IMG/VR virus record: IMGVR_UViG_3300046557_000370
Coordinates: 1 to 35,303 of that record
Source of the DNA: a virus
Length of the DNA: 35,303 nt
Direction: 5' to 3' (one strand)
The first letter of the stretch is position 1, and the number at the start of each line of letters is the position of its first letter. The notes below the pieces were generated by a model that was given only the letters and a program-made list of their open reading frames with translations, did no database searches and was not told where the DNA came from. The translations under genes were made by a program, and so were the position numbers. Positions 720-3,893 of the stretch are shown in pieces.

Positions 720-1097
720 TCAGTCCTCAACGACGCGGTACATCTCACCGTCCACGAACACGACCAGCGCGCCGTGACCGATCGCTGCAATCGCCTGCGC
801 GTACTCCTCCGCGCGCTTGCCGCCCGCCATTTCGCCGTAGCCCCGCAGCGTCTCGATAACCCGCTCCCGGCTGTCCTCGGTGACGAGGTACTGCCTCGGG
901 CGCGGCTCGCCGACGACGCGGTACACGGCGTGCTTCACCCGCACCTCGAGCGCGCCGGCCTTCACGGCCGCGATAGCCCGCTCGAACTCGGCCGCGCGCG
1001 GCGGCTTGCCGTGGGGCTCGGTGCGGTCGGCCTTGGACTGCTCGAGCTCGGCCAGGATCATCTCGCGGCTGTGCTCGAGAACTGAGTGGTGTCTCAT
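720..1097 (-). CDS. Hypothetical 125-aa protein with an internal duplication
   Basis: Unrecognised. The protein is two copies of a roughly 50-residue unit (residues about 10-64 and 76-125). Each starts with Ser-Arg-Glu and a helix, then an EF/EY-x-R/Q-AIAA helix, and ends in a beta-like stretch finishing Y-R-V-V. The ATG at 1097 has no Shine-Dalgarno. A TACGCT -10 box ends exactly 6 bases before it, so the mRNA is probably leaderless. It is divergent from the integrase with a 91-base gap, which would also fit a small regulator. It may be host DNA beyond an attachment site or a phage control gene. Confidence 0.7.
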   Translation of the reverse strand: MRHHSVLEHSREMILAELEQSKADRTEPHGKPPRAAEFERAIAAVKAGALEVRVKHAVYRVVGEPRPRQYLVTEDSRERVIETLRGYGEMAGGKRAEEYAQAIAAIGHGALVVFVDGEMYRVVED

Positions 1098-2652: not shown

Positions 2653-2889
2653 CTAGCCAGCCAAGGCGGCGTGGGGCTGGCTCGCGGACTTGCAGGCCTT
2701 GAGGAAGACCTCGAACGCCGAGGCCCGAGCCTCGGGGTCGTCGTCGAGCACTGCCTTGTCAAATATGCAGTACTGCTGACCATCAGGGGTCTGAACTTCG
2801 ACGGCGTATTCGCTGCCGAGGTCTGCGATGTAGATGTGAATGACTGGATCGGATGGTTCGCCGCGCACGATGGGTCCTCCCGTTTTCAT
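2653..2889 (-). CDS. Small protein under a LexA box; candidate antirepressor
   Basis: A 78-aa acidic protein of unknown family, predicted as beta strands in the first half and a helix near 50-68. It follows the repressor gene on the same strand. A perfect SOS box (2964-2979) and a 9-codon leader lie between the two. The leader stop overlaps this ATG (ATGA), so translation may be coupled. An alternative GTG start at 2868 has a good GGGAGGA site. In phages 186 and Gifsy, LexA-controlled antirepressors work this way, and the visible repressor cannot self-cleave. The antirepressor role is inferred from position only. Confidence 0.7.
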   Translation of the reverse strand: MKTGGPIVRGEPSDPVIHIYIADLGSEYAVEVQTPDGQQYCIFDKAVLDDDPEARASAFEVFLKACKSASQPHAALAG

Positions 2890-2915
2890 CCGCGCTCTCG
2901 TGAGAGAGGACCCAT
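2886..2915 (-). CDS. Nine-codon leader ORF coupled to the small SOS gene
   Basis: An ATG at 2915 is preceded by AGGAG with a 4-base gap. It encodes nine residues (M-G-P-L-S-R-E-R-G) and stops at a TGA overlapping the ATG of the next gene. A short CTCTC/GAGAG dyad lies inside it. It may be a translational-coupling leader or simply a fortuitous short ORF. Confidence 0.4.
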   Translation of the reverse strand: MGPLSRERG

Positions 2916-2963
2916 GTTTCTCCTGTTCAGACGGTGGCGCAAGGCTTTGGCGCCGCGCATCTG

Positions 2964-2979
2964 TCGAACGTCCGTTCGA
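2964..2979 (-). promoter_or_regulatory. Perfect actinobacterial LexA (SOS) box
   Basis: TCGAACGTCCGTTCGA matches both half sites of the mycobacterial/actinobacterial LexA operator TCGAAC-N4-GTTCGA exactly. It starts 18 bases after the repressor stop and 48 bases before the leader start, both on the minus strand. The only downstream target on that strand is the 78-aa gene. On the plus strand no gene starts until 3663. Confidence 0.85.
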
Positions 2980-2997: not shown

Positions 2998-3465
2998 TCA
3001 CGAACGCGCTTCAGTTCCCTGAGATTCGTCCTGATGCCTCGTTGCGACCTCAATGCCGTTGCGGCGGAGGACTTCGAAGGCAGCCCTACGAGCTTTGTCG
3101 TACTGCTCTAGGGGCGCTCCGGGCGCGCCGGCAATGAAGGCCGCGTACAGCGCGTCCTCGACGACAGCGGCGAGCTTGCCGGGCGTGATGGCCTCGCGGC
3201 GGTAGCGCGCCTCAAGGTCGTCATCCACGTTCCCCGCGAGGTAGTCGTCGAAGTAGCCGCCGGGCCAGCCGAGCGCGGCTTCGACTTTGGACCAGGTGCG
3301 CCCGCGTTTCTTGGCGAACTCGCCCTGCTCCATTCTGATGATCGTATTGACGCCCACTGTTGCTAGGTCGGCAAACTCTTGCTGGCTTAGTCCCATTTCA
3401 TCGCGTCGTGCGCGCACTCGGTTGCCAAGCATTACGCGAAGGTCCGAGCTGCCCTCGGTACTCAC
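2998..3465 (-). CDS. Cro/CI-type phage repressor (HTH_XRE), likely immunity repressor
   Basis: The protein is 155 aa from a GTG at 3465, chosen because AGGGAG sits 7 bases upstream. The frame is open to an ATG at 3525, but that start has no ribosome site. Residues about 10-65 form an XRE helix-turn-helix with the L-S-Q-Q-E-F-A and T-I-I-R-M-E-Q-G signature. The rest is helical and acidic, ending in a low-complexity tail. No S24 peptidase Ser-Lys motif is seen, so RecA-driven self-cleavage as in lambda CI is unlikely. It is divergent from the small HTH gene at 3663 across a 197-base control region, the classic lysis/lysogeny switch arrangement. Confidence 0.9.
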   Translation of the reverse strand: MSTEGSSDLRVMLGNRVRARRDEMGLSQQEFADLATVGVNTIIRMEQGEFAKKRGRTWSKVEAALGWPGGYFDDYLAGNVDDDLEARYRREAITPGKLAAVVEDALYAAFIAGAPGAPLEQYDKARRAAFEVLRRNGIEVATRHQDESQGTEARS

Positions 3466-3662
3466 GGCATGTCTCCCTATTCGCTGAGTAACCCCACCGT
3501 CACTCATCCTCCGGGAGTTTGCCATAGATCACCAGTACCTACCACCAACGTGCGGGGTACTTGGCGGAAACTTGGCAATCCATGGGAGCTCTTGGTGGTG
3601 CCATGAGACCCTTCCGAGCTTTACGGTTGTTGAATGGTAGATCCTGGGTGTAGGTTCCACTC
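3466..3662. promoter_or_regulatory. Divergent immunity control region with candidate operators
   Basis: This lies between the repressor and the Cro-like gene. An inverted pair ACCACCAA (about 3542-3549) and TTGGTGGT (about 3593-3600) and the related stretches TTTGCCATAGATCACC and TTGGCAATCCATGG could be operator sites. The plus-strand promoter is at 3627-3656. The repressor promoter is not clear. Which repeats are real operators cannot be decided by eye. Confidence 0.55.
3627..3656 (+). promoter_or_regulatory. Promoter of the Cro-like gene, probably leaderless
   Basis: -35 TTGTTG (3627-3632), an 18-base spacer and -10 TAGGTT (3651-3656), which fits the actinobacterial TAGRRT form. The ATG follows after 6 bases, so the mRNA probably starts at the start codon. 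It likely drives the early operon. Confidence 0.65.
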
Positions 3663-3893
3663 ATGAACCTCCACGGACCTACCATCCGGGCCCGCCGGCT
3701 GGCGCTGGGGATGACCCTCAAGGACGTGACGGCCGCGACCGGCATCGACGACAGCAACCTGTCGAAGATCGAGCGCGGCCAGCTCCCGGGGGCCGCACAC
3801 CGCAAGGCCGTGGCGCTGGCCGACTGCCTCAAGCTGCCCCTCGACAAGATCTCGCCCGAGTTCGAAGAGGTCCAGCGTCTGGCGGCGAAGTGA
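3663..3893 (+). CDS. Small HTH_XRE protein, Cro-like
   Basis: A 76-aa protein made almost entirely of an XRE helix-turn-helix (residues about 5-62), with the T-L-K-D-V-T-A-A-T-G turn and the N-L-S-K-I-E-R-G recognition helix. It is first in the early operon, divergent from the repressor, so it is likely the Cro counterpart that shuts off repressor synthesis. It has no Shine-Dalgarno and a promoter -10 six bases upstream. The next gene starts inside its stop codon (GTGA overlap). Confidence 0.88.
   Translation: MNLHGPTIRARRLALGMTLKDVTAATGIDDSNLSKIERGQLPGAAHRKAVALADCLKLPLDKISPEFEEVQRLAAK

What the first reader, a model, noticed from the sequence alone, without database searches (positions are those of the whole stretch)
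2653..2979. Perfect LexA box beside a repressor that cannot self-cleave: a candidate SOS-controlled antirepressor
TCGAACGTCCGTTCGA at 2964-2979 matches the actinobacterial LexA operator at every defined position. It starts 18 bases past the repressor stop and in front of a 78-aa minus-strand gene with a 9-codon leader. The repressor shows no S24 peptidase motif, so DNA damage must act by another route. Known LexA-controlled antirepressors (Tum of phage 186, Gifsy proteins) give a precedent for this layout. The 78-aa family is not recognised, so the protein itself could be new.
Basis: partly seen in the sequence, partly recalled or inferred. Interest (0 to 1): 0.85.

Follow-up and report, generated by a model that had tools for sequence, protein, structure and literature searches.

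The report
SOS-switched small gene beside phage repressor
A virus that can lie dormant in an actinobacterium carries, right behind its dormancy-keeping gene, a small unknown gene with a textbook host DNA-damage control site in front of it; this probably lets the virus wake when its host is damaged, by a protein that matches no family searched.

Summary
TCGAACGTCCGTTCGA (2964-2979) is a perfect actinobacterial LexA operator, the only one in the 35.3-kb record (about 0.002 expected by chance), 18 bases behind the repressor stop. The decisive new evidence is a relative, IMGVR_UViG_3300025928_000027 (L002), with the same integrase, repressor and Cro-like genes and a perfect box at the same spot. 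All 12 box-arm bases are kept while the flanks are only 53% identical and the spacer has changed. Behind that box lies a diverged homologue of the small gene (37% identity; 115 versus 111 bases to the start codon). A LexA-controlled small gene is therefore very likely. No S24 or M78 peptidase is encoded in the record, and the small protein matches no family in the libraries searched.

Antirepressor is the most likely function (about 0.45) but is inferred from layout only; an excision factor or an accessory SOS gene remain open. Two corrections: the gene probably starts at GTG 2868 (71 aa), and the 9-codon leader is not conserved. The principle (LexA-controlled antirepressor, as in Gifsy and phage 186) is known; the protein family, the actinophage setting and the place inside the immunity region appear new.

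The parts
2964..2979 (.). Perfect palindromic LexA operator TCGAACGTCCGTTCGA
   Evidence: Only perfect site in the record; all 12 arm bases conserved in L002 at the same place
2653..2868 (-). Small gene, 71 aa from GTG 2868 (78 aa if from ATG 2889); candidate antirepressor
   Evidence: Homologue in L002 1459-1680, 37% identity, pairwise BLASTP E 5e-13; no Pfam, NCBIfam, PHROGs or PADLOC family
2998..3465 (-). HTH (XRE-type) repressor, 155 aa, no peptidase domain
   Evidence: HTH_31/HTH_3; no S24, LexA or M78 in the record; 77% identical in L002
2886..2915 (-). 9-codon ORF MGPLSRERG plus stop, not conserved
   Evidence: Read from the sequence; no counterpart in L002
2870..2915 (-). Inverted repeat ATGGGTCCTC/GAGGACCCAT that could mask the ribosome-binding site of the small gene; not conserved
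   Evidence: 10-bp perfect arms; -22.3 kcal/mol, z -1.9; a different structure in L002
3466..3662 (.). Divergent control region between repressor and Cro-like gene, with ACCTACCA repeats
   Evidence: Repeats; nearly identical in L002; no LexA-like site
3663..3893 (+). Cro-like HTH protein, 76 aa, first gene of the rightward (early) set
   Evidence: HTH_3; 95% identical in L002
1189..2589 (+). Serine integrase, convergent with the small gene
   Evidence: Resolvase and Recombinase domains, phrog_95 integrase; 94% identical in L002

Best explanation
This is the immunity region of a temperate actinophage. In the lysogen the 155-aa HTH repressor silences the divergent Cro-like/early promoter, and host LexA sits on the box just behind the repressor gene, keeping the small gene off (by blocking its own promoter, read-through from the repressor gene, or both). 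After DNA damage, RecA-driven LexA cleavage frees the box and the small protein is made; it binds the repressor, probably its C-terminal part, and releases it from the operators, so the prophage is induced. Shown here: the box, its conservation together with the small gene, and the absence of S24 and M78 domains. Established elsewhere: LexA cleavage and LexA binding to such boxes in Streptomyces. Inferred: that the box is used in this unknown host, and that the small protein acts on the repressor.
For: Perfect box, 0.0018 expected per window. Box arms 12/12 conserved in L002 against 53% identity of the flanks, chance about 5e-4. The small gene is homologous behind both boxes, at -111 and -115. 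The S. venezuelae LexA consensus tCGAAC-N4-GNNCGa and listed positions of mostly -20 to -199 fit; the dnaE2-2 box TCGAACGTCCGTAC differs by one base over 14. No S24, LexA or M78 protein in the record. Gifsy repressors of about 150 aa are not cleaved and are inactivated by small LexA-controlled proteins. The repressor C-terminus (69% identity) and the small protein (37%) diverge much faster than the HTH part (85%). In the distant locus L136, with the same integrase-repressor-Cro layout, both box and small gene are absent.
Against: No direct evidence of contact between the small protein and the repressor, and no expression data. Only one relative was found. The gene adjoins the integrase. No promoter was recognised near the box (actinobacterial promoters are poorly covered). 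The record is probably incomplete, so an antirepressor or protease elsewhere in the phage cannot be excluded. The Streptomyces prophage Samy is not induced by mitomycin C, so SOS induction is not universal in such phages.
Confidence: 0.47

Rival explanations
1. The small protein is the recombination directionality factor (excision factor) of the neighbouring serine integrase, switched on by SOS so that the prophage is cut out when DNA is damaged; the repressor is removed by other means.
For: It lies directly next to, and convergent with, the integrase gene. Small size suits some known factors (my knowledge). No other gene of the early region that I scanned matched an excisionase family, so the phage's factor is unassigned.
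Against: No excisionase-family match for the small protein. The small protein is only 37% identical between two phages whose integrases are 94% identical, whereas an integrase partner should be conserved with it. L136 has the integrase-repressor layout without this gene.
Confidence: 0.2
2. The small gene is an accessory SOS gene of the prophage (for example acting on RecA, cell division or another host target) that does not itself cause induction.
For: The protein has no recognised family and diverges fast (dN 0.63), as accessory genes often do. SOS operators also control non-induction genes.
Against: It sits inside the immunity region directly behind the repressor in both phages, and this would leave the non-cleavable repressor without an SOS route.
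Confidence: 0.2
3. LexA on the box mainly acts on the repressor transcript (roadblock or end of transcription behind the repressor gene), and the small protein is a repressor partner whose dose shifts under SOS, possibly a co-repressor.
For: The box is 18 bases behind the repressor stop on the same strand, and no terminator was found between the two genes.
Against: The similar box-to-start distance (-111, -115) looks like promoter control of the small gene.
Confidence: 0.08
4. The box is a chance match with no function.
For: A perfect box alone is therefore weak evidence.
Against: Expected 0.0018 per window, and kept base for base in a relative whose surrounding gap is only 53% identical.
Confidence: 0.04

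Closest known systems
Gifsy antirepressors GfoA/GfhA/GftA with repressors GfoR/GfhR/GtgR (Salmonella; PMC3121763)
   Same: Small LexA-controlled gene; phage repressor of about 150 aa with HTH and no self-cleavage domain.
   Different: [quoted passage not shown] here the gene is directly behind the repressor. No family shared; function here untested.
Tum of coliphage 186 (cited in PMC3121763; otherwise my knowledge)
   Same: LexA-controlled phage gene that lifts repression by a non-cleaved repressor.
   Different: Different host phylum and LexA operator; a larger protein with a DinI-like part; no recognised family match here.
Streptomyces venezuelae LexA regulon (PMC9380542)
   Same: The box fits the published 16-bp motif and the usual distance to the start codon; the regulon includes prophage-like genes (phage tail fibre protein vnz_21525).
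   Different: No immunity-region antirepressor appears in the passages I read.
Propionibacterium phage B3 immunity region
   Same: Repressor gp30, then small gene gp29, then a convergent integrase; a LexA-like palindrome TCGTACATGCGTACGA lies between gp30 and gp29.
   Different: gp29 shows no resemblance by eye; the palindrome matches only 10 of 12 positions; the record annotates a different anti-repressor, Ant, on the early side.

Membership tests
Actinobacterial LexA operator (SOS box) | 16-bp palindrome matching tCGAAC-N4-GNNCGa | tested here: met
   12 of 12 defined bases in the window and in L002; consensus from PMC9380542
Actinobacterial LexA operator (SOS box) | LexA binds it and damage relieves it | not testable with these tools
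   Needs a binding assay and RNA measurements
LexA-controlled antirepressor (Gifsy/Tum kind) | Small gene under a LexA operator | tested here: met
   Conserved box upstream of homologous small genes at -111 and -115
LexA-controlled antirepressor (Gifsy/Tum kind) | Target repressor lacks a self-cleavage domain | tested here: met
   HTH only, no S24 or LexA family in the record
LexA-controlled antirepressor (Gifsy/Tum kind) | Protein binds and inactivates the repressor | not testable with these tools
   No complex prediction or assay was available; divergence pattern is only suggestive
LexA-controlled antirepressor (Gifsy/Tum kind) | Sequence homology to a known antirepressor family | tested here: not met
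   No Pfam, NCBIfam or PHROGs family at significant E-value; known antirepressors are themselves unrelated to each other, so this feature does not define the functional kind
Serine-integrase recombination directionality factor | Match to an excisionase or directionality-factor family | tested here: inconclusive
   No PHROGs match, but known factors are very diverse
Serine-integrase recombination directionality factor | Switches the integrase to attL x attR recombination | not testable with these tools
   Needs an in vitro assay
Self-cleaving (S24) phage repressor | Peptidase S24 domain | tested here: not met
   PF00717 and TIGR00498 absent from the record while control genomes ring
ImmR/ImmA module (protease removes repressor) | M78 (ImmA/IrrE) metalloprotease gene | tested here: not met
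   PF06114 absent from the record; the small protein has no HExxH motif
LexA as direct phage repressor (GIL01 kind) | LexA boxes in the lytic/early promoter | tested here: not met
   No site with 9 or more of 12 matches in 3466-3662

The most novel reading that the evidence does not exclude
A previously undescribed family of about 71-aa SOS-induced antirepressors encoded inside the immunity region of actinophages, evolving quickly together with the repressor C-terminus while operators and the repressor's DNA-binding part stay fixed, so that phages with the same operators may differ in which antirepressor wakes them.
Probability: 0.3. Interest if true: 0.7.

Novelty: new variant of a known kind. 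Interest (0 to 1): 0.5.

Why it matters
How SOS reaches actinophage prophages is little described in the papers I could search; the prophage Samy of S. ambofaciens was even found not to respond to mitomycin C (PMC11302927). This locus offers a concrete candidate link from host LexA to a repressor without a self-cleavage domain, and mutating one box would test it. If true it adds a new, very small protein that switches off a phage repressor, useful as a damage-responsive control part.

Tried and rejected
Homologues of the small protein or repressor in INPHARED phages and PLSDB plasmids: none for the small protein (only chance-level matches) and only HTH-level matches for the repressor. GTDB genome contigs with repressor and integrase: none. 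Viral contigs with small protein, repressor, integrase and Cro: only one complete relative. Whole-collection scan for TCGAACGNNCGTTCGA: of the 80 loci examined one had a repressor-plus-integrase neighbourhood (L024), and it is unrelated. Fold prediction: the small protein may be beta-beta-beta-alpha-alpha at pLDDT 63, with no significant match (best Z 3.7), so nothing is built on it; the repressor model is too poor to use. Leader peptide/attenuation: the window has a hairpin (-22.3 kcal/mol, z -1.9) but L002 has neither the leader ORF nor the same stem, so it was dropped. Sigma-70 promoter and terminator scan: nothing. LexA as direct repressor of the lytic promoter: no site there.

Full report
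What the record is. The window is an IMG/VR virus record of 69% GC with a serine integrase (1189-2589 +), a repressor (2998-3465 -), a Cro-like HTH gene (3663-3893 +), RecE- and RecT-like genes, and terminase, portal, head protease and head genes. Its terminase matches actinophages at 36-41% identity (best Arthrobacter phage Hum25 and Streptomyces phage Samy). It is a temperate actinophage; the host is not known.

The observation. TCGAACGTCCGTTCGA at 2964-2979 is the only perfect actinobacterial LexA operator in the record. A first-order model expects 0.0018 per window. With a small matrix made from the S. venezuelae SOS boxes of PMC9380542 it is the best site in the window (17.4 bits; 11 of the 13 boxes used scored 12.6-17.5, the other two 10.2 and 5.6). 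It lies 18 bases behind the repressor stop and 111 bases before GTG 2868. The published consensus is tCGAAC-N4-GNNCGa, and listed boxes mostly lie 20 to 199 bases upstream of start codons.

The test by comparison. One complete relative was found, IMGVR_UViG_3300025928_000027 (L002). Its integrase is 94%, repressor 77% and Cro-like protein 95% identical. Between repressor and small gene the two sequences are only 53% identical (62 of 117 columns), yet all 12 defined bases of the box are the same while two of the four spacer bases differ. Under the local divergence that has a chance of about 5e-4. Behind the box L002 has a 73-aa gene at nearly the same distance (-115) that is a homologue of the window's small gene (pairwise BLASTP E 5e-13, 37% identity over the alignment, shared pattern DG..YC..D..V..D.P.AR). 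This lifts the box from a perfect match to a conserved, gene-linked operator. In the distant locus L136 (integrase 39% identical) the integrase-repressor-Cro layout is the same, but no box and no such gene lie in the gap. A scan of viral contigs shows that perfect boxes alone turn up in many unrelated places, so the conservation carries the weight.

The small gene probably starts at GTG 2868 with GGGAGGA 7 bases upstream. The 9-codon ORF (2915-2886) and the inverted repeat that could hide this ribosome-binding site exist but are not found in L002, so a leader mechanism is not supported. The repressor has HTH matches only; S24, LexA and M78 families are absent from the record while control genomes ring. 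No LexA-like site lies in the repressor/Cro control region, so LexA does not hold the lytic promoter directly.

Mechanism. The most economical reading is SOS, then LexA cleavage, then small protein, then repressor inactivation. The first two steps rest on established knowledge of LexA in Streptomyces. The box and the gene are shown here. The action on the repressor is inferred from the precedent of Gifsy phages, whose repressors of about 150 aa are not cleaved and are removed by small LexA-controlled antirepressors, and from the need for some SOS route to a repressor that seems unable to cleave itself. Divergence fits but does not prove it: the control region and the repressor's HTH part are conserved (85% identity), the repressor C-terminus less (69%), the small protein least (37%). 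The box could work as a promoter operator or as a roadblock to read-through from the repressor gene, since no terminator was found between them. An excision factor for the neighbouring integrase, or an accessory SOS gene, cannot be excluded.

Verdict. A conserved LexA-controlled small gene in an actinophage immunity region is very likely (about 0.9). That it is an antirepressor is about 0.45-0.5. The principle is known; the protein family and this arrangement appear new in the sources searched.

Noticed in passing
window 720-1097 (-): The 125-aa protein divergent from the integrase is a tandem duplication of a unit of about 60-70 aa that occurs singly in L002 (3240-3433) and L006 (5741-5959 -), always beside the integrase; no family found. 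It is another candidate for the integrase's partner.
   Followed up: partly
L006 2172-2187: A perfect LexA box TCGAACTGGAGTTCGA lies between a tail-like ORF (ends 2149) and an endolysin-like ORF (starts 2470) of a related phage fragment; possibly SOS control of lysis, possibly chance.
   Followed up: no
L007 3808-3823 (Propionibacterium phage B3): An imperfect LexA-like palindrome TCGTACATGCGTACGA lies between the repressor gp30 and a small gene gp29 that is convergent with the integrase: a parallel layout with an unrelated small gene.
   Followed up: partly
window 2998-3893: Steep divergence gradient against L002: Cro-like gene dS 0.11, integrase 0.32, repressor 0.69, small gene 1.19. The immunity region looks like a hot spot of exchange or fast change centred on the small gene.
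   Followed up: partly
MW584196.1 25205-25220 (Mycobacterium phage prophiGD27-1): A perfect LexA box TCGAACACATGTTCGA lies inside annotated hypothetical gene 67, in a run of small unknown genes.
   Followed up: no
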